From: Anaerolineales bacterium
Lineage (GTDB): Bacteria; Chloroflexota; Anaerolineae; Anaerolineales; UBA4823
NCBI GenBank assembly: GCA_025057645.1
Contig: JANXBJ010000002.1
Coordinates: 62,001-126,000 of the forward strand
Length of the DNA: 64,000 nt
Reading direction: 5' to 3'
Every line of letters begins with the position of its first letter. The first letter of the stretch is position 1. This document shows positions 10,820 to 20,255 of this stretch, piece after piece. Made by a program: the position numbers and the translations under genes. A model generated the notes under the pieces. The model was not told where the DNA came from and did not search any database. It worked only from the letters and a program-made list of their open reading frames with translations.

Positions 10820-10938
10820 GTGTGTAGAAATGCATGCAAAAAGTGCATGGTAGTGATTTTAGCACCTGCTAAGCTGGTCTGGTTAAGCTAAAAACTGGCT
10901 ATACGCGGCAGTGTTTCAATCTATAACCCCTATATCCA

Positions 10939-11010
10939 GCGGGCGTCGCCAAGTGGTAAGGCATCAGCCTTCCAAGCTGACATTCGCGGGTTCGAATCCC
11001 GTCGCCCGCT
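10939..11010 (+). tRNA. tRNA-Gly (anticodon TCC)
   Basis: A cloverleaf can be drawn: acceptor stem GCGGGCG/CGCCCGC with discriminator T; anticodon stem TCAGC/GCTGA around loop CTTCCAA, so the anticodon is TCC; T arm CGCGGGTTCGAATCCCG. The 3' CCA is not encoded. Confidence 0.95.
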
Positions 11011-11088
11011 CTCAAAAAGACCTCCCTGGTTGACTGTGGTGGGAAGAGGTAGATTGAGAGATTGAAAGTGTAAGAGAGAACCGCAGTT

Positions 11089-11160
11089 GGGCCCGTAGCT
11101 CAGCGGCAGAGCGGACGGCTCATAACCGTTTGGTCGCAGGTTCGAATCCTGCCGGGCCCA
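11089..11160 (+). tRNA. tRNA-Met (anticodon CAT)
   Basis: Acceptor stem GGGCCCG/CGGGCCC with discriminator A; anticodon loop CTCATAA gives CAT; T arm GCAGGTTCGAATCCTGC. Position 1 is paired and the anticodon stem lacks the three G-C pairs of initiators, so it is an elongator Met tRNA or the CAT-anticodon Ile tRNA that is modified to lysidine. CCA is not encoded. Confidence 0.92.
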
Positions 11161-11637
11161 TTGATGAGAGGGTTTAGTTCTAAGAACAGGGAGCTTACGT
11201 TGGAAATCGCAGAGTATGGCGATTTCAGGCTGGGTTTGAGAATTCGCTCCATAGCTGTGGTTTCGGTTAGGGACTGCTCCTGTTAAGTAAAGGCTACTTG
11301 CTTGTGGCATGGGTTCTCTTTCCGATCCGTTAATACTTCGCATTGGATCAGGGCAGCTGAGTGAAGTTCTCCTTCTAATGTTGGTAAAGGTGTTGCTTTT
11401 TCACAACTAGAGGGGAGCGATAGATGCAGGGGGCTAATACAGCATCGGAGCTTGTCGCAAGAAGGTCGTGGACTTTGTCGTCGTTCGGTGCTAGGGGTGG
11501 CAAGTTGGGGTATGCAAAGATTGAAGGCTGTAGACTGAACTTGCCCCTAGTGTCAACTAATCCGCCAAGCTATTATCCTAAGCACCTTTGGGTCTTGCGC
11601 CATTTAGGGGTTTTTGTTGAGCTATCGGGGCGGGCTT
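11161..11637. other. Gap between the tRNA pair and the two-gene helicase locus
   Basis: No credible gene. The plus-strand frame 11424-11648 has no family features and runs into the next gene. No integrase, no copy of the tRNA 3' end and no terminator hairpin with a T run were found. Confidence 0.5.
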
Positions 11638-14600
11638 ATGCGCCTTGAGGACTGGGAAAACCGACTGAAGCCCTATCTCTCGCAAATCGAGCTTTTAGGA
11701 GAAATTCCCCTCAGTCGAGAGGAACACGCAGAACTGGAAAAGATGTTGGGTAAACTGGTGCAACAATGCGGTCTGACCGAAGCAACGCGCCGTTTACGAA
11801 AGGACTATCCAGCTGTGTTCGTCACCTATCTGGCATTCCAAGCTGCCCTAAACGAGGAGCGAGGCTTTTGGGATCGAGTCGCACAGGGTATTGGCATAGA
11901 TACTCCGTCTCCGCTTTTCCATCCTTCACACCACTGGGGAAAGATTTTCGTCGAGATCCTCCAGAGTTATCCAAACTTGCGCCAATTTGAAGGCGTTTCA
12001 GGACTTAAGTTCGTCACCCCAATCCGCTTGCACGGCGGCATTCCCGCCTTTTCCCTGCCCGATTTCTTCAAGCACATTCTGCTCCCCAGCGTTCAGAATT
12101 CGCACTATTCACAGCTGGAGGACGAGGCTGCTCTGGCTGCTCTGCTTAAGCACTATACGGTAGAACTGTTTGTCGATGACATCGTGCGCTACTTCTTCCG
12201 GCACGGCGGCAAACATGCGCTGAGTTTTTTCCGAAAGTGCCGCCAGATGGCGCGTGCGGCAATCCGAGGTGAACCCTTACCCACAGCAGAAGTGTTGGGG
12301 TTGCGCCCTTATGTGCTCCAGGCATTCGAGCAGTATCTGCAGAACCCGCCTGAACCTTCTCACCGCCGAAGGCTGCCGCGTCTCTTCTTTGAGCCCTACG
12401 AACCGGCTTTTCGGCTGTTCCTTCCCGCCCAACCTGTTGCGTCAGAAGAAGCGGGCTATGCTTTCTTTTGGCGGATAAGCTACGTGCGGGGAGAGATTGA
12501 AGTGACTGCCGCCGATGTGCGCGTGCGCACGCGGCGTACAGGACAGGAATGGCAAACGGAAGAAGTAAGTGAATTTCTGCTCGTCGAACCTGCCGAGCAT
12601 GCACGGGTTAGTCTGATTGCTCGAGGAGAAGAAGAGAAGACCGTCTTGAAACATTCTCTGCGCTTGCTACCTGCAACGGGAGCACCGCCCTTGTTGGCAT
12701 TCCGTTTTGAAGATGGCGCACAGCGAGCCATTAGCCCGTATCTACCCGCCCAAACCACATGGCTTTTCTACCCAGCGGATGTCTCGCTTGACTTTCAAGG
12801 AAAGGCACGTCAGGTTCAGGTGTTGCATCCCTTTGCACCTCCATGGGAGGCTTGGCAAGCACAAGCTTGGGATTTGCAAGGGGTGCACCTTATCCGCTTG
12901 TTGCGGCATGGAGTGGACATTTGTCCACCCCTGTTGGTGCGAGCTACCCAAGAGCCGGCGTTGGAAGGGCATGCTGTACATGCGCAGAGCCTGCCGGTCG
13001 AAGAGAAGCCACTTTTTCTCGGAGCTCCGCGGTTGCGTCTACCATTACGAAATACCCACAACCCTCAAGAGGAATTGGGTCGTTGGCAGCTTAGCATTGA
13101 ATCAAATGGGATGACTCATCCGCAAGGTAGATGGGAAGGGAGAGCAAGCCAACTGCCTGCCCAAATTCAGCCCCAAGAAGGTTGTGCTCGGCTGGATTTA
13201 TCGCCTTGGCTTGGGCAAAAACCAATTGGGAGTTTTCAATTAGTGGCTAGAGGCGCAGCTCGGGAGGAATTTCTGCTGCCGTTTCACGTTTGGCATGAGA
13301 TTCGCATAGAGGGGCTACAGCCCTACTACCTGCCAAGTGCACAGGGCGCAGAGGAAGTTTGCTTCTTGATTTCCCTTCCGGAGGATTGTCGTTTGAGGAG
13401 TTTGCAGGAAGAAGAGGTCAAGGTCAGCAAATCTTCGAGAGGTTGGCAGGTTCGGGTTACTCGTGAAGCAGATCAAGCCTATCTAGCTCTGGAATATCCT
13501 CGGCAATCCGAAATAATATGGGTGCCGCTCAAGCTGGCTGTGCCGCGCCTGTGCTGGACACTGCAACTGGATGCTTCCGCTAAGCCCCAATGGCATAGCA
13601 GTGCACTGCGCATCTCGCTAGCCGATCTGCAGCGAAGCCGGCCGGCACGTTTGCGGGTTGTCTTGCCGCTGGTAGGATCTTATCGGTTGTTAGCTGTGCT
13701 TCATCTTCGCAGTCCCGCTCTTGCGAAGACGCTTCAGTCTTCTAGGGTATGTGAAATCACCTCTCTCCAACCTAAAGCGGAGTTTCAGCTGGATGAGTTT
13801 TCAGACACCTTGCGCCGCCACATCCGAGAAGCGGTTTTTGATTTTGTCTTAGAGCTACGCGACTTATCCCATAATTTATCCCTTCCTGTCTTGCGCTTGA
13901 CGCAGGAGTTGGACATACGGGTTCCACCCTACTTCGAAAGGCTGGCGGATGGCCGCTGGCGCATTCATTGGTTTGAGCGTGATCCCGTGCGTCATCGTCG
14001 CCTGCGCTTGTGGAGCCTTTGGCAACCTTGGGCGCAACCGGTTGAAATTCCTCTACCAGACGATGCACCTGCTAGTAACTCCGCTCCGGCAGAGGGCTGG
14101 TGGATGGTAGAAGTGCCCGAAGAAATCGGCTTGCCTCCGGCGTGGTACCGTGTTCAATTTCTTGCTCTTGCTCCCGATGACGCACCGCCGATCTCTGATG
14201 ATCCACCGCAAGGCTCTATCCAAGTTGAGTTAATCGATCCTAAAGTCAGGCTAAAACAGATCGAACAGGAGCTTATCCAACACCCCAACCGTGCCTTTGC
14301 TCTCCATGCTGAAAAGGCTTGCATCTACGATAGCTTGAAGCTTACTCAGCAACGAGACATGGAGACTCGATGGTGTGTCAGCCATTGGGAGGAGGGAAGT
14401 CTGCTGCACCTATTTGCCTTTCAGCGCTGGCTCGCTGGGCGTGATCCCGACACGCGGCGCGCCCTTTTGATTCATTTGTTTCGGCCGGAGAGCTTGAGAA
14501 AACTAAAAACTTACCCAGAACAGTTTGTTCAAAAATATCTCGACCTGATCTCCGAAGTCCAGATCGTGAAGCCAGAGAGTGCTTGGCTAATTTTGCAGAT

Positions 14601-15264
14601 GGCAAAGAAGTCCGAAGCCCTTTTCAGGGCACTCCAAATTCTTGTCAAGGATCAAGATGCACAAGCTGTTGAGCATATTTGGCGAGAAGTCAAGGCGGGA
14701 CGAGTATCGAAGACCGATGCTATTCAGCTTCTTTCGATAAATGCGGCTTTTGCCGCAAGTGAACTCCTTAGGAAAGAAGACACTCCTTTGCGGTCCGACC
14801 TACTCGTGGAACTAAGCCGCTATTGCCCAATAGAGGGTATCGTGCGGGTTGGATATTGGGTATTTTCAGAAGCTGGGTGGGGGAGGCTGGTTGAGATCCG
14901 GGGTGCAAGGCATGCAGAGGCATTCGAGAAGGAGAAAGAGCAACCTATATTAGTAATCGCTCTATGGGATAGCGCAACAACACTGGATGTCGATCTGGCG
15001 CGTGAGGAGATTTCTATGAGAGGCAGGAGTGGGGCGTACCGGTGTGGATGCAATCGCTTTATTGCCACGAGAGGTGAGGATTGTCAGGAGGCATGGAACC
15101 GCCACGCAGAAGTGTGCGACCAAACCGAAAATATGTCTCCTATTCGCTTCCCCTATGCGATGCGCGAGAGGATCGTCTACTCGCCTACGAAGCCTGAAAA
15201 TATCTACGGTCATTTGCCAACAAGTTGTGGTAATAACCAAAAAGAGCAACCCGCCCCGAGCTAG
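11638..15264 (+). CDS. Large protein paired with a DUF1998 helicase; DruH-like candidate of a Druantia type III-like system
   Basis: A 1208-residue protein without a domain I can name with certainty. Residues 1-230 look alpha-helical (MRLEDWENRLKPYL, ELEKMLGKLVQQCG). Residues 250-870 are rich in short beta strands typical of stacked sandwich domains. Residues 880-1100 are helical again. The C-terminus has a zinc-binding-looking pattern near 1134-1160, C-x-C then a later cysteine, then H-x3-C (YRCGCNRF, DCQEAWNRHAEVC). No signal peptide or membrane segment. The helicase gene starts 14 bases downstream, so the two form one unit. A large unknown protein just upstream of a DUF1998 helicase is the layout of druH-druE. 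The ATG at 11638 follows GGGGCGGG; a TTG at 11614 is possible. Confidence 0.55.
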   Translation: MRLEDWENRLKPYLSQIELLGEIPLSREEHAELEKMLGKLVQQCGLTEATRRLRKDYPAVFVTYLAFQAALNEERGFWDRVAQGIGIDTPSPLFHPSHHWGKIFVEILQSYPNLRQFEGVSGLKFVTPIRLHGGIPAFSLPDFFKHILLPSVQNSHYSQLEDEAALAALLKHYTVELFVDDIVRYFFRHGGKHALSFFRKCRQMARAAIRGEPLPTAEVLGLRPYVLQAFEQYLQNPPEPSHRRRLPRLFFEPYEPAFRLFLPAQPVASEEAGYAFFWRISYVRGEIEVTAADVRVRTRRTGQEWQTEEVSEFLLVEPAEHARVSLIARGEEEKTVLKHSLRLLPATGAPPLLAFRFEDGAQRAISPYLPAQTTWLFYPADVSLDFQGKARQVQVLHPFAPPWEAWQAQAWDLQGVHLIRLLRHGVDICPPLLVRATQEPALEGHAVHAQSLPVEEKPLFLGAPRLRLPLRNTHNPQEELGRWQLSIESNGMTHPQGRWEGRASQLPAQIQPQEGCARLDLSPWLGQKPIGSFQLVARGAAREEFLLPFHVWHEIRIEGLQPYYLPSAQGAEEVCFLISLPEDCRLRSLQEEEVKVSKSSRGWQVRVTREADQAYLALEYPRQSEIIWVPLKLAVPRLCWTLQLDASAKPQWHSSALRISLADLQRSRPARLRVVLPLVGSYRLLAVLHLRSPALAKTLQSSRVCEITSLQPKAEFQLDEFSDTLRRHIREAVFDFVLELRDLSHNLSLPVLRLTQELDIRVPPYFERLADGRWRIHWFERDPVRHRRLRLWSLWQPWAQPVEIPLPDDAPASNSAPAEGWWMVEVPEEIGLPPAWYRVQFLALAPDDAPPISDDPPQGSIQVELIDPKVRLKQIEQELIQHPNRAFALHAEKACIYDSLKLTQQRDMETRWCVSHWEEGSLLHLFAFQRWLAGRDPDTRRALLIHLFRPESLRKLKTYPEQFVQKYLDLISEVQIVKPESAWLILQMAKKSEALFRALQILVKDQDAQAVEHIWREVKAGRVSKTDAIQLLSINAAFAASELLRKEDTPLRSDLLVELSRYCPIEGIVRVGYWVFSEAGWGRLVEIRGARHAEAFEKEKEQPILVIALWDSATTLDVDLAREEISMRGRSGAYRCGCNRFIATRGEDCQEAWNRHAEVCDQTENMSPIRFPYAMRERIVYSPTKPENIYGHLPTSCGNNQKEQPAPS

Positions 15265-15278
15265 AAAGGACAAAAGCG

Positions 15279-18200
15279 ATGGCTTTACATCCTGTAGATA
15301 CCACTCGTTATCTGCGTGACACCTACATCCGTTATCTAAAGACCATCAAGCCTTTCCAGGATGAGCGCCTGCGTAAGGAGTTTGCGCGGGCCTTGGAAGA
15401 AGAAAATTTGCTCTGCAAAGGGCCTTACATCGAGATCACCCCTCCGTTCAAAACCGGTAAAAGTTTGCACGAACTGGTTGCTGAGGGTGTGCTCTCGCCA
15501 CTATTTGCCCAACTTTGCCACCCAGATGGCTTACAGTGGGACCGGCCGTTGTGGAAACATCAAGAGACTGCCATTCGCAAGATAGTCCTTCAGCATCGGA
15601 ATGTCATTGTCACTACTGGCACTGGCAGCGGGAAGACCGAGGCCTTTCTGATTCCTATCCTCAACTCTCTGCTAAGAGAAGCAGAAGCTGGAACGCTCGC
15701 TCAACCGGGGGTGCGCGCTCTACTCCTCTACCCCATGAATGCTTTGGCTAATGACCAAATGGAGCGGTTGCGCAAAGTCCTCGCCTTCTATCCTAATATC
15801 ACTTTCGGACGCTACATTGGTGAGACACTCTCAGGCGACAAAGAAGCCCGTCAAGAGCACGCGCGAATCCACGGCAAACCACCGCTCCCCAACGAACTCG
15901 TCAGTCGCAACCAAATGCAAGCTGCTCCACCCCATGTATTGCTCACCAACTACGCTATGTTGGAATACCTCCTGCTGCGTCCAGAAGATTCGCCTCTCTT
16001 TGATGGGCAAACTGGAAAACATTGGCGCTTTATTGTCCTAGATGAGGCGCACTCTTATGACGGCGCTCAGGCGGCCGAAATCGCTATGCTGTTGCGCCGT
16101 CTGCAAGACCGCGTCACAGAGGGAGGCAAGAAAACTCTGCAGGCGATCCTAACCAGCGCTACCTTGGGGGACGACACTCCGGAGAGTTCCCGCCAGATGG
16201 TCAAATTTGCCCGTGATCTCTTCGGTTTGAATTTCGATTGGGAGGAAAGCGATCCTAATCAACAGGACGTTGTGCGTGGCGAACGGCTGTCTGAAAGTGC
16301 ACTGGGAGACCCGTGGGGAAAGCCATCTGCAGCGGTCTACCATACCCTAGCAGAAATCGCCAAGGCCTGGCGCGAAGGTCAAGGATTTCACGGTGTAGAT
16401 GCTAGTTCCCTGCCAGGGGTTCCAACTGAGATCCTAGAACAAGCTCTCCGTGCAGCGCAAGCCCACACTACACAAGCCGCACCGCTGTTTCTCTTTCATG
16501 TTCTCCGCGGGGATGAAAATCTGCGCACGCTACGCCTTCTCCTAGTTCGGCGACCTGCCCTCTTAAGGGAAGTAGCCAGAGAAGTTTTCCCGGCATTGTC
16601 AGCCGATAAAGCGGAAGCTGCCGTGGCTGATTTAGTCTCTGCGGCTATCCTAGCGCGAGAGAACCCGGAACATGCCCCGCTTTTGCCTGCTCGCTACCAC
16701 GTCTTCCTACGCGCACTGGAAGGCGCATTTATCTGCTTGAACGTCAATGCGCCGGAACATCGAGGCGAGGATGCTAAGCCACTGTTCTTCCTAAAACGTC
16801 ATAAGCTCTGTCCCCATTGTGGCAGCCGCGTGTTTGAGCTGGCAAACTGCACCCGCTGTGGTGTCGCTTATCTAATCGGCGACCTGACTGAGGGTGGGAA
16901 ATTAAGCAAGGAAGATGTTCCCTTTAAGATCGAGGACGAGTGCGAGTATCTTACGCAGAATAGTGTACTCTACCCCAACGAAATCGAGGCGAGGAATCTC
17001 AGATACTTCGCCCTAGAAAAACATCTCACCGATGCCGATGAAGATGCGTTGGTCGAAGGAGAGGCTGAGACCGGAGAACAACCTGAAGTTGAACTGCAAC
17101 AGAAGGAACTTTGCCCACGCTGTGGGGCGGTATACGAGTATAGGGTTATTGCGAACCGCTGTGCGTGCGGCGTCCCCTTGTTTCCTGTTTCAGAGGTCGT
17201 TATGGGCAAGCGCAGTACCCTGCGGCGCTGCGCTTCGTGCTCAACTTATAGTCGCGGCGGAGTCGTCTATCGTTTCCTGACGGGTCAGGATGCGCCGGTT
17301 AGCGTGCTGGCAGGCGCCTTGTATGAAGACGTGCCCCCAGCCCCCAGACGGGAAGAACGAGAATATCCCGGTGAAGGGCGTAAGATGCTCATCTTTACTG
17401 ACAACCGCCAAGAAGCGGCTTTCTTTGCTTCGTACCTCGAGCGAGCGCATGAGCGCAACTTGCACCGTCGTTTAATTGTTGAGATGTTAAGACAGAATTC
17501 ATCGAGCTTGAGGTTATCTGATGCCCATGCTCGCCTTGTGACGCTAGCCGACCGTTACGGGGTTTTTGATGAACGAACAGGCCTCGAGGAGAAACGTAAA
17601 GAGGCTGCTGTATGGCTGATGCAGGAATTCAGTGGATTGGATAAGCACTTGAGCTTAGAGGGGGTGGGTTTGGTGCAATTTTATCTGGTCAAGAAAGAGA
17701 ACTGGCAACCTCCTGATGATTTACTAGAGAGGCCTTGGAATTTCCAACCCGATGAGGTGTTTGCTCTGATCACAATTTTGCTCAACACCTTGCGCCGTCA
17801 GGGGGCAGTCTCTTATTTGCTCCATGACGAAGGCATTGATTTGCTCACTGCCTATCATGCCAGGTTTGTCCCCCGTGCTCGTCCCTTCTATATCCGCGAG
17901 AGCACCGCCGAGAGCAGTTACAAATATGGTGTCTATTCTTGGCTGCCCACCCAGCATAACAATAGTCGTCTGGATTTTGTCACCCGCTTACTCAAGCGGC
18001 GCACGCCAGAGCTGGAGGGTGAAAAGTTGAAAGAAATGGGCATTGAACTGCTCCGGCGACTTTGGTACTATCTCACAGGGATGAACAGTCCAGTTGCAGA
18101 TTGGTGGCTGCAATCGGCTCGATTGCCAAGGGATAGAGGAATTGCGTATTATCTCAACCATCAAGCTTGGGAGATGATCCCCACCCTCGGGGAAAAGGTT

Positions 18201-20255
18201 GATGGCTGGTTTATCTGCAATCGATGTCGCAACCTTTCGGCGGTGAACTTACATGAAGTTTGCCCCACCTATGGGTGTCGGGGAGCACTTGAACCGTTGG
18301 AAAATTGTTGCTCTTGGATACAGGACAACCTTTATCGCTATCAATATCAACAGTCCGCTATTGTCCCTCTTAGCACCCAAGAACACACGGCGCAGTGGAA
18401 ACCGCAAAAAGCTGCTGAAGTGCAAAAGGATTTTATTCTGGGCAAGGTAAATGTCCTTAGTTGCTCGACTACGTTTGAGTTGGGCGTAGATGTAGGCGAC
18501 TTAAACGCTGTAGTTTTGCGCAACATGCCACCTTCGACAGCCAACTACATACAGCGTGCCGGGCGTGCTGGACGGCGTACCGATAATGTCGCCTTTGTTG
18601 TTACCTTTGCCCAGCGCCGCCCCCATGACCTCACCTTTTACGACCAGCCCGAACGCATGATCGCAGGTCAAATTCGGCCGCCCATCGTCTCACTCAAGAA
18701 TGACAAGATTATCCGCCGTCATATACACTCAGTAGTCTTTGCCGAATTCTTCCGCTGGGCGAGAGACCGGTATCGCTTTCGATATGCAACGAGTGGGGAT
18801 TTTTTTGCTCCTGAGGACTCAGTCCGAGATGGGGTGAAGCTGCTGCGGGAATTCTTGCAAAGCCGGCCAGCAGAGCTTGAAGCTGCGTTGTTCCGTGTCG
18901 TGCCTGCTGATCCCGATTTGCAAGATAAATTAGGCTTAAGGAACTGGGCTTGGGTTGAGACCTTAACTGGCAGAGAAGAAGCTATCTTGGATAAGACGGC
19001 GCAGATTCTCCGTGGAGAACTGCAAGAGTTCGAGCGGCTAGAGCAGAAGGCAGCGAAGTCACGCAATTATAAGCAGGCAGCTCAATATAAGCAAATCCAG
19101 AATCAAATCCGCCAGCGCCAGCTGATTGGCTTATTAGGGACTTACAATGTGTTGCCCAAGTACGGCTTTCCGACTGACGTCGTTCGCTTACAAACCGACC
19201 ACTTGAATATTGCAGGAGCGCAAGAGATCGAATTAGAGCGAGATCTAAAAGTTGCTATTACCGAGTTTGCGCCGGGCGGACAAGTGGTTGCTGCCAAGCA
19301 GATTTGGTATAGTCGTGCCATTCGTAAATTGCCTAACAAACTCTGGACGCCTTATGCTTATGCGATTTGTAGCCAATGTCAACGTATGACTCTCTTGCCT
19401 GAAAGCGATCAGGTCCCGACCTCCTGTGACTTTTGTCGTCAACCGCTTTCTAAAACCCGCAATCGCGGGGTGTTTATTGTCCCCGAGCATGGCTTTCTGG
19501 CGGACTATAGGACCGAAAGCCCCGGCGAGAAGCCTCCAGAGCGAATCTACGCCAGCCGGGTATATTTCTCCCACTATAGCTCTAGCTCTGGCGATCCCTC
19601 GAGGGTCATCGAATTGGAACTTGTCCCGGATCGTGCTTTTCCGTCGACCGTAACTGTTTACAAAGGTTACTCAAAGTATGGATGGTTGGCGTTGGTAAAC
19701 AACGGCTATTCTCACGGCTTCAATGTCTGCATAGATTGTGGTTATGCGGATGTAATCGACACTCGTTCAAAGCAAGACAAGAATATTTCCCATAAAAGAC
19801 CACTGGACAGCCAAAATTGTACCGGGACACTTGTCCCATATCGTCTTGGTCATCGCTTTATGACAGACGTACTCGAATTCCGCCTAGAACTTCCCCTGCG
19901 CCGCGAGGAAGAAATATTCTCCTTGCTGTATGCGGTCCTCAACGGCGCTAGCGATGCTTTAGACATCCCTCGCGAAGACATTGGGGGGTTGGTGTATTAC
20001 AGCGCAGGCTCACCCTCTTTCCTCCTATTTGACGATACACCGGGTGGCTCAGGCTATGTGCAACATATTTACGACCATTTTCTATCCGTGTTCCAAGCTG
20101 CATATCGGCGTGTCTCAAGGTGCGATGGTTGCAGTCCGGAGACTAGTTGTTATAGTTGTCTACGTAGCTACGACAACCAGCCGTTCCACGATAAACTAGA
20201 GCGCCGTCTGGCCTGGCAGGTGTTAGGAAGGATCCTCGAAGCGCCTCTTCGGTGA
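15279..20255 (+). CDS. DEAH-box helicase with DUF1998-like C-terminus; DruE-like candidate
   Basis: A 1658-residue superfamily 2 helicase. Walker A is TTGTGSGKTE (about 112-121), the DEAH box is VLDEAHSYDG (DEAH at 255-258), and motif III is TSATLGDD. The second RecA lobe has FELGVDVGDLNAVVL and QRAGRAGRR (about 1065-1100). At least five cysteine pairs lie between and after the lobes (CPHCG...CTRCG, CPRCG...CACG, CNRC, CSQC...CDFC, CIDCG), suggesting zinc ribbons. The C-terminus (LLFDDTPGGSGYVQ, CDGCSPETSCYSCLRSYDN) is the DUF1998 pattern seen in DrmA, DrmB, DruE and MrfA proteins. Ribosome site GAAAGGA. As part of a two-gene unit with the preceding protein it most resembles Druantia DruE; a stand-alone repair helicase of the MrfA kind is shorter. 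Confidence 0.8.
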   Translation: MALHPVDTTRYLRDTYIRYLKTIKPFQDERLRKEFARALEEENLLCKGPYIEITPPFKTGKSLHELVAEGVLSPLFAQLCHPDGLQWDRPLWKHQETAIRKIVLQHRNVIVTTGTGSGKTEAFLIPILNSLLREAEAGTLAQPGVRALLLYPMNALANDQMERLRKVLAFYPNITFGRYIGETLSGDKEARQEHARIHGKPPLPNELVSRNQMQAAPPHVLLTNYAMLEYLLLRPEDSPLFDGQTGKHWRFIVLDEAHSYDGAQAAEIAMLLRRLQDRVTEGGKKTLQAILTSATLGDDTPESSRQMVKFARDLFGLNFDWEESDPNQQDVVRGERLSESALGDPWGKPSAAVYHTLAEIAKAWREGQGFHGVDASSLPGVPTEILEQALRAAQAHTTQAAPLFLFHVLRGDENLRTLRLLLVRRPALLREVAREVFPALSADKAEAAVADLVSAAILARENPEHAPLLPARYHVFLRALEGAFICLNVNAPEHRGEDAKPLFFLKRHKLCPHCGSRVFELANCTRCGVAYLIGDLTEGGKLSKEDVPFKIEDECEYLTQNSVLYPNEIEARNLRYFALEKHLTDADEDALVEGEAETGEQPEVELQQKELCPRCGAVYEYRVIANRCACGVPLFPVSEVVMGKRSTLRRCASCSTYSRGGVVYRFLTGQDAPVSVLAGALYEDVPPAPRREEREYPGEGRKMLIFTDNRQEAAFFASYLERAHERNLHRRLIVEMLRQNSSSLRLSDAHARLVTLADRYGVFDERTGLEEKRKEAAVWLMQEFSGLDKHLSLEGVGLVQFYLVKKENWQPPDDLLERPWNFQPDEVFALITILLNTLRRQGAVSYLLHDEGIDLLTAYHARFVPRARPFYIRESTAESSYKYGVYSWLPTQHNNSRLDFVTRLLKRRTPELEGEKLKEMGIELLRRLWYYLTGMNSPVADWWLQSARLPRDRGIAYYLNHQAWEMIPTLGEKVDGWFICNRCRNLSAVNLHEVCPTYGCRGALEPLENCCSWIQDNLYRYQYQQSAIVPLSTQEHTAQWKPQKAAEVQKDFILGKVNVLSCSTTFELGVDVGDLNAVVLRNMPPSTANYIQRAGRAGRRTDNVAFVVTFAQRRPHDLTFYDQPERMIAGQIRPPIVSLKNDKIIRRHIHSVVFAEFFRWARDRYRFRYATSGDFFAPEDSVRDGVKLLREFLQSRPAELEAALFRVVPADPDLQDKLGLRNWAWVETLTGREEAILDKTAQILRGELQEFERLEQKAAKSRNYKQAAQYKQIQNQIRQRQLIGLLGTYNVLPKYGFPTDVVRLQTDHLNIAGAQEIELERDLKVAITEFAPGGQVVAAKQIWYSRAIRKLPNKLWTPYAYAICSQCQRMTLLPESDQVPTSCDFCRQPLSKTRNRGVFIVPEHGFLADYRTESPGEKPPERIYASRVYFSHYSSSSGDPSRVIELELVPDRAFPSTVTVYKGYSKYGWLALVNNGYSHGFNVCIDCGYADVIDTRSKQDKNISHKRPLDSQNCTGTLVPYRLGHRFMTDVLEFRLELPLRREEEIFSLLYAVLNGASDALDIPREDIGGLVYYSAGSPSFLLFDDTPGGSGYVQHIYDHFLSVFQAAYRRVSRCDGCSPETSCYSCLRSYDNQPFHDKLERRLAWQVLGRILEAPLR

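What the first reader, a model, noticed from the sequence alone, without database searches (positions are those of the whole stretch)
11638..20255. Two-gene locus: large unknown protein plus DUF1998 DEAH helicase, Druantia type III-like
A 1208-residue protein without a recognisable domain is followed 14 bases later by a 1658-residue helicase with a complete RecA pair, several zinc ribbons and a DUF1998-like end. The Druantia type III antiphage system has this layout (DruH then DruE). The upstream protein could be a divergent DruH or a new partner, which would make this a new subtype. Only gene order, size and helicase motifs support this.
Basis: partly seen in the sequence, partly recalled or inferred. 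Interest (0 to 1): 0.75.

Follow-up and report, generated by a model that had tools for sequence, protein, structure and literature searches.

The report
Divergent Druantia III-like phage-defence gene pair
Two neighbouring bacterial genes form what is very probably a phage-defence pair, a distant cousin of the known Druantia type III system, and in related bacteria the same pair sits inside another defence system (BREX), at the place where that system normally keeps its own helicase.

Summary
A 1208-aa protein (UP, 11638-15264) is followed after 14 nt by a 1658-aa YprA-family helicase (HEL, 15279-20255). HEL lies among Druantia DruE proteins, away from MrfA/YprA repair helicases and ARMADA. 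It ends just after DUF1998 and lacks the C-terminal nuclease domains of E. coli DruE. No PADLOC, Pfam, NCBIfam or PDB model recognises UP, but profile-profile comparison shows it to be a remote DruH homologue over about 450-650 residues (E 1e-6 to 1e-7; decoys negative). The pair is strictly linked wherever contigs allow (17 loci), co-evolves (Mantel r 0.96) and is sporadic (6-8% of genomes). UP diverges faster than HEL in all 78 comparisons. The window copy is solitary, beside a tRNA pair. In about seven relatives the pair is embedded in type-3-like BREX operons, where BrxHII would be expected; in one a DruH-like domain is fused to a type ISP restriction enzyme. I read it as a new, deeply divergent variant of Druantia III. 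Nuclease-free two-gene Druantia systems are already reported (mycobacteria, 'type III-B'); their sequences could not be fetched, so this may be an outlying branch of a known group. No phage protection was tested.

The parts
11638..15264 (+). UP: 1208-aa DruH-like protein, first gene of the pair
   Evidence: ORF; family in 30/396 genomes of the class; profile-profile homology to DruH
11638..13728 (+). UP residues 1-697: largest stretch that aligns with DruH residues about 14-693 (the core match is residues 1-480)
   Evidence: hhalign prob 84-94%, E 8e-6 to 1e-7
11638..12357 (+). UP residues 1-240: all-helical N-terminal domain with the conserved HGG(I)P motif (132-136)
   Evidence: AlphaFold2 model, pLDDT mostly 70-90 here; conservation
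12370..12687 (+). UP residues 245-350: Ig/fibronectin-III-like beta sandwich
   Evidence: Model; Foldseek probability up to 1.0 to Ig/FNIII/C2 domains with weak E-values, VIA Z 6-7
14830..15132 (+). UP residues about 1065-1165: C-terminal 'GWGR' segment plus zinc finger (CxC/CxxC ... H ... C/H); also found joined to or beside UvrD helicases
   Evidence: Invariant C1136 and C1138, G1080; module in L062, L065
15279..20255 (+). HEL: 1658-aa DruE-like YprA-family SF2 helicase without a fused nuclease
   Evidence: PADLOC DruE1 692 bits, DruE3 634 bits; tree; ends where E. coli DruE has about 380 further residues
15555..16175 (+). HEL RecA1 (Pfam DEAD, residues 93-299; Walker A K119, DEAH 255-258)
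18372..18578 (+). HEL RecA2 core (Pfam Helicase_C, residues 1032-1100; motif VI 1092)
19929..20162 (+). HEL MZB / DUF1998 zinc-binding domain (residues 1551-1628)
10939..11161 (+). tRNA-Gly(TCC) and tRNA-Met(CAT), the conserved left border of the variable site; not part of the pair
   Evidence: same Sua5-tRNA-tRNA order without the pair in four same-genus genomes

Best explanation
UP-HEL is a two-gene anti-phage system of Druantia type III kind, from a branch so diverged that current DruH profiles miss it. Inferred mechanism: UP (helical N-domain, at least one Ig-like domain, C-terminal zinc finger) is the sensor and adaptor that recognises infection, possibly a phage tail or baseplate protein as proposed for DruH. 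It licenses HEL, a DNA helicase/translocase of the DruE/YprA family that loads on single-stranded 3' tails of phage replication intermediates. HEL has no fused nuclease, so the outcome would be a block of phage DNA circularisation or replication, as reported for the nuclease-free mycobacterial pair. Alternatively, cleavage would be supplied by UP or by partner proteins such as the BREX proteins beside it in some genomes. Shown here: gene pair, linkage, clade, remote DruH homology, defence context in relatives. Inferred: sensing, activation, target and outcome.
For: HEL best PADLOC matches are DruE1/3/2/4. It lies in the Druantia-side radiation, outside the YprA and ARMADA clades. UP vs DruH hhalign: prob 84-91%, E 8e-6 to 9e-7; score 63-72 against at most 29 for 20 shuffled, and about 18 for reversed, decoys. 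Adding cyanobacterial UP relatives raises it to 94%, E 1e-7, 625 columns. UP vs DruA-D, PglX, BrxC, BrxHII, PglZ and helicases: under 1%. Model of UP: helices then an Ig-like domain, the order described for DruH (PMC13192584). The pair is linked in 17/17 loci with room for both. Mantel r 0.957, UP 31% vs HEL 54% mean identity, UP lower in 78/78 pairs; faster divergence is also noted for DruH. Embedded in BREX in about seven genomes, fused to type ISP R-M in one.
Against: No phage test. Homology to DruH rests on profile-profile comparison; single sequences mostly do not detect it. The fold model of UP is weak beyond residue 350, and DruH itself (9tud) did not appear in the fold search. Catalytic residues of a nuclease were not found in either protein. 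The window copy is not in a defence island.
Confidence: 0.72

Rival explanations
1. It is simply an Anaerolineae member of the nuclease-free Druantia III branch already in the literature (mycobacterial MSMEG_1253/1254; 'Druantia type III-B'), with nothing new but its host and divergence.
For: MSMEG DruE is 1667 aa with DEAD, helicase C and DUF1998 only, and DruH is 1132 aa (PMC13316683); HEL is 1658 aa and UP 1208 aa. Bell et al. describe a separate Druantia III-like branch, most often without a nuclease (PMC12458937).
Against: No PADLOC model matched UP apart from a marginal, unrelated JetC2 hit (E 0.013). Canonical DruH was found in 0 of 400 genomes of the phylum, though that search had no positive control. 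The BREX embedding and ISP fusion are not mentioned in the passages I read of those papers.
Confidence: 0.4
2. UP-HEL is an accessory or replacement helicase module of type-3 BREX, and solitary copies such as the window's are remnants or orphan modules.
For: NERD-UvrD/BrxC/PglXI/UP/HEL/BrxA in G439 and G274; BrxF/BrxC/UP/HEL in G458; UP/HEL/PglZ/BrxA in G482; partial loci in G483, G175, G027. BrxHII is the usual type-3 helicase, present in 77% of systems (PMC12839542).
Against: More than half of the loci, including the window, have no BREX neighbour; the own genome has no PglZ or DUF6079 match. Solitary copies are intact and co-evolving. No single contig shows the complete order; PglZ was not found in G439 or G274.
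Confidence: 0.2
3. HEL is an MrfA/YprA-type DNA-repair helicase and UP a housekeeping partner.
For: HEL shares the YprA-family core and MZB domain; a DECH_helic match in this genome falls on HEL itself.
Against: HEL clade is separated from YprA by a long, fully supported branch. Congeners carry a separate 852-874-aa YprA. Sporadic presence and changing neighbours.
Confidence: 0.04

Closest known systems
Druantia type III (DruH-DruE; E. coli, PDB 9tud and 9tu7-9tuc, PMC13192584)
   Same: Two genes in the order DruH-like then DruE-like; YprA-family helicase with DUF1998; upstream protein with helical N-terminus followed by Ig-like domain; remote homology over 450-650 residues; upstream protein diverges faster.
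   Different: [quoted passage not shown] UP carries a C-terminal zinc finger within a region not matched to DruH. DruE clade is separate (a joint clade is neither supported nor rejected, p-AU 0.18). No DruH profile recognises UP.
Mycolicibacterium MSMEG_1253/1254 Druantia III (PMC13316683) and 'Druantia type III-B' (PMC12458937)
   Same: Sizes, gene order, and a helicase without nuclease; phage protection shown for the mycobacterial pair.
   Different: Sequences not available here, so identity unknown; host phylum differs; BREX embedding and ISP fusion not mentioned in the passages read.
Type-3 BREX (BrxF, BrxC, PglXI, BrxHII, PglZ, BrxA)
   Same: In about seven relatives the pair lies in such an operon, between PglXI and PglZ/BrxA or after BrxC.
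   Different: HEL is a YprA/DruE helicase, not the RapA-like BrxHII; the window copy has no BREX genes.
ARMADA type I/II (PMC12458937)
   Same: YprA-family defence helicase; associated with PglX-like methylase in some relatives.
   Different: HEL falls outside the ARMADA clade; no BrxHII-PglX pair beside the window copy; no C-terminal Vsr nuclease found by Pfam. The same genus carries separate ARMADA-like 1734-1772-aa helicases.
MrfA/YprA repair helicases
   Same: Helicase core plus MZB domain.
   Different: Twice the length, several extra zinc ribbons, different clade, different partners.

Membership tests
Druantia (any type) | DruE helicase of the YprA defence branch with DUF1998/MZB | tested here: met
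   PADLOC DruE1-4 top hits, 436-693 bits; MZB; tree
Druantia type III | Two-gene operon, DruH-type gene directly before DruE | tested here: met
   14-nt gap; same order in 17 loci
Druantia type III | Upstream protein homologous to DruH | tested here: met
   Profile-profile prob 84-94%, E 8e-6 to 1e-7, decoys negative; remote homology only
Druantia type III | Upstream protein recognised by a curated DruH model (PADLOC) | tested here: not met
   No DruH match at E<=1 for UP; none in 19 family members
Druantia type III (E. coli kind, III-A) | C-terminal PLD nuclease domains on DruE | tested here: not met
   HEL ends at the position of E. coli DruE residue 1737 of 2118; no HKD motif. Absent in the mycobacterial pair too (PMC13316683)
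Druantia type III-B / mycobacterial Druantia III | HEL groups with GIH50614.1 or MSMEG_1254 | not testable with these tools
   Those records are not in the collections reached; three actinobacterial plasmid loci were fetched, two read as ARMADA-like and one is unannotated
Druantia type III | DruH fold (9tud) | tested here: inconclusive
   Only residues 1-350 of UP modelled usefully; helices then Ig-like sandwich; 9tud not listed among matches
Druantia | Protection against phage | not testable with these tools
   Needs an experiment
Type-3 BREX | PglZ and BrxC with the pair in the window's genome | tested here: not met
   No PF08665 or PF19557 match in G000; met in several relatives
ARMADA | YprA helicase in ARMADA clade with BrxHII and PglX neighbours | tested here: not met
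   Tree; neighbours of the window copy are tRNAs and a GntR regulator
MrfA/YprA repair helicase | Groups with about 850-aa YprA of the same genus | tested here: not met
TALON | Neighbouring NERD nuclease, TPR-CSD and TBP genes | tested here: not met
   No such Pfam match in the flanking genes

The most novel reading that the evidence does not exclude
The DruH/DruE-like pair is an interchangeable helicase-sensor cassette. Alone it is a minimal, nuclease-free Druantia. Inserted into type-3 BREX it takes the place of BrxHII, and fused to a type ISP restriction enzyme it serves as a targeting module, so one lineage links Druantia, BREX and restriction-modification.
Probability: 0.35. Interest if true: 0.75.

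Novelty: new variant of a known kind. Interest (0 to 1): 0.6.

Why it matters
Profile-based tools miss the sensor half of these loci, so a whole lineage of Druantia-like systems in Chloroflexota-type bacteria, and probably cyanobacteria, goes uncounted. A helicase without a nuclease, linked to a fast-evolving DruH-like partner, is a simple natural test of whether Druantia stops phage by cutting DNA or by blocking its processing. Loci in which the pair sits where type-3 BREX normally keeps BrxHII make a direct swap experiment possible.

Tried and rejected
MrfA/repair reading: rejected by tree and by separate YprA genes in congeners. ARMADA reading: rejected by tree. The early label 'DruII' for cyanobacterial plasmid loci L071-L073 in the tree was my mistake: they have no DruM/F/G and their first gene is a UP relative. 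BrxA-like insert in HEL (expected from PMC12458937): not detected by hhalign with only three BrxA sequences, inconclusive. Direct attachment repeats around the island: only weak chance-like repeats; base composition drifts only slightly. Promoter and terminator scans at chance level. Viral contigs and plasmid/phage collections: no UP relatives by direct search. Fold search with the 480-residue model: no E below 0.001, DruH not listed. Second model (residues 335-700): pLDDT 41, not used. Canonical DruH in 400 genomes of the phylum: none, without a positive control.

Full report
Observation. The window (G000:C22:62001-126000, a 3.1-Mb, 96%-complete assembly) holds UP at 11638-15264 (1208 aa) and HEL at 15279-20255 (1658 aa), same strand, 14 nt apart. 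HEL has a complete RecA pair and a C-terminal MZB/DUF1998 domain, the motifs GTGSGKT, DEAH, SATL and QRAGRAGR, and ten CxxC pairs. UP has no Pfam or NCBIfam match, no PDB match, and no PADLOC match apart from a marginal, unrelated one to JetC2 (E 0.013).

The helicase. PADLOC ranks DruE1 (692 bits), DruE3 (634), DruE2 (490) and DruE4 (436) far above DrmA, BrxH and DpdJ. In a 42-row tree the window helicase sits in a clade of pair helicases (SH-aLRT 96-100), together with three longer-partner relatives and, more weakly (81-86), cyanobacterial plasmid helicases. YprA/MrfA and ARMADA helicases are separate, fully supported clades. A tree joining this clade with gammaproteobacterial and alphaproteobacterial DruE III is not rejected (p-AU 0.18), nor supported. 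HEL stops where E. coli DruE has about 380 further residues, the region described as two PLD domains (PMC13192584). Two same-genus genomes carry a separate 852-874-aa YprA helicase in addition to HEL, so HEL is not the repair orthologue.

The upstream protein is a remote DruH. I built a UP family (19 sequences) and a DruH family (9 sequences from loci where an 'STY4851/ECs_5259' or PADLOC DruH3-matching gene precedes DruE). hhalign gives one co-linear match from the N-termini: UP 1 to about 480-697 with DruH about 14 to 513-693, probability 84-91%, E 8e-6 to 1.3e-6, score 63-70. Reversed and 20 block-shuffled DruH alignments scored at most 29. Unrelated defence or helicase families scored under 1% probability. 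One other family matched: an 855-967-aa protein encoded before DruE-like helicases on cyanobacterial plasmids (L071-L073) aligns with UP at 96.7-97.7% (E 3.5e-10 to 2e-12; decoys at or below 30.5). Adding it raises the UP-DruH match to 94% (E 1e-7, 625 columns). DruH is described as a helical N-terminus with Ig-like domains from residue 257 (PMC13192584). The C-terminal region of UP, with a zinc finger, was not matched to DruH.

Linkage and evolution. UP relatives occur in 6 of 101 near genomes and, with a profile, 30 of 396 genomes of the class (the latter count includes a few hits to the C-terminal module alone). In every contig with room for both (17 loci) UP is directly followed by HEL. 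Distances of the two proteins correlate (Mantel r 0.957, 0 of 2000 permutations), and UP is less conserved than HEL in all 78 pairs (31% vs 54%).

Location. Sua5, tRNA-Gly(TCC) and tRNA-Met(CAT) precede the pair. Four same-genus genomes keep Sua5 and both tRNAs but have no pair there; two of them carry it elsewhere. Presence is therefore variable and the site is beside tRNAs, but no attachment repeats were found.

Defence context in relatives. Flanking genes shared between loci are BREX genes. G439 and G274: NERD-UvrD helicase, BrxC (DUF6079), PglXI, UP, HEL, BrxA. G458: BrxF, BrxC, UP, HEL, then the start of a PglX-like frame. G483: BrxF, BrxC, UP (contig end). G175: BrxC fragment, UP, HEL. 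G027: PglX, UP (contig end). G482: UP, HEL, PglZ, BrxA. BrxHII is the usual helicase of type-3 BREX (PMC12839542; that paper does not contain the words Druantia, DUF1998 or YprA), so the pair appears to stand in its place; no single contig shows the whole order. In G404 a DruH-like domain is fused behind a type ISP restriction-modification enzyme and sits before a DruE-like helicase. The window's genome has neither PglZ nor DUF6079, so its copy is solitary.

Mechanism. Druantia III is reported to use DruH as likely phage sensor and DruE as a helicase that loads on 3' single strands (PMC13192584). A mycobacterial DruH-DruE pair with a nuclease-free 1667-aa DruE protects against phage and blocks DNA circularisation and replication (PMC13316683). 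By homology I infer the same division of labour here: UP senses and licenses, HEL engages phage DNA. Because HEL lacks a nuclease, I favour a processing block, or cleavage supplied by UP or partners. None of this was measured.

Known or new. It works like Druantia III and meets its gene-order and homology criteria, but fails the DruH-model test and lacks the PLD domains, so I do not file it as canonical type III. Nuclease-free Druantia III-like systems are already described (PMC12458937; PMC13316683), and I could not obtain those sequences. The safe claim is a new, deeply diverged variant of a known kind, with two features I did not find described: profile-invisible DruH and embedding in BREX.

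Noticed in passing
L145/L146 (G439), L147 (G274), L149 (G458), L150 (G482), L055, L047, L009: The UP-HEL pair is embedded in type-3-like BREX operons (BrxF, BrxC/DUF6079, PglXI, PglZ, BrxA, often with a NERD-UvrD helicase upstream) where BrxHII would be expected.
   Followed up: yes
L067:2754-11456 (G404): A 2901-aa protein joins a type ISP restriction-modification enzyme (HSDR_N, N6_Mtase, Type_ISP_C), two RNA polymerase alpha C-terminal domains, a sigma-70 region 4 and a UP/DruH-like domain; a DruE-like helicase follows.
   Followed up: partly
L062:4701-7526, L065:7401-10293 (also L063, L066): The C-terminal module of UP (about 977-1212, GWGR segment plus zinc finger) is also fused to, or encoded beside, UvrD-type helicases; a portable defence-associated module.
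   Followed up: partly
L071-L073, cyanobacterial plasmids: A UP-like protein, a roughly 308-aa protein and a 2083-2123-aa DruE-like helicase form a three-gene unit on Nostoc, Pseudanabaena and Fremyella/Tolypothrix plasmids; the UP-like protein is annotated 'chromosome segregation ATPase-like' or hypothetical.
   Followed up: partly
L010:3154-8244 (G006): A 1697-aa partner has a degenerate helicase-like N-terminus (about 270 residues) before the UP-like region and matches PADLOC C3a139 ('HKD+Snf2'); UP itself does not.
   Followed up: no
window 10930-11343 (-): The 137-aa ORF listed there lies over the two tRNA genes on the opposite strand and is spurious.
   Followed up: yes
own genome G000: No separate 850-aa YprA/MrfA helicase was detected in the window's own assembly, although congeners have one; may be incompleteness of the assembly.
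   Followed up: no
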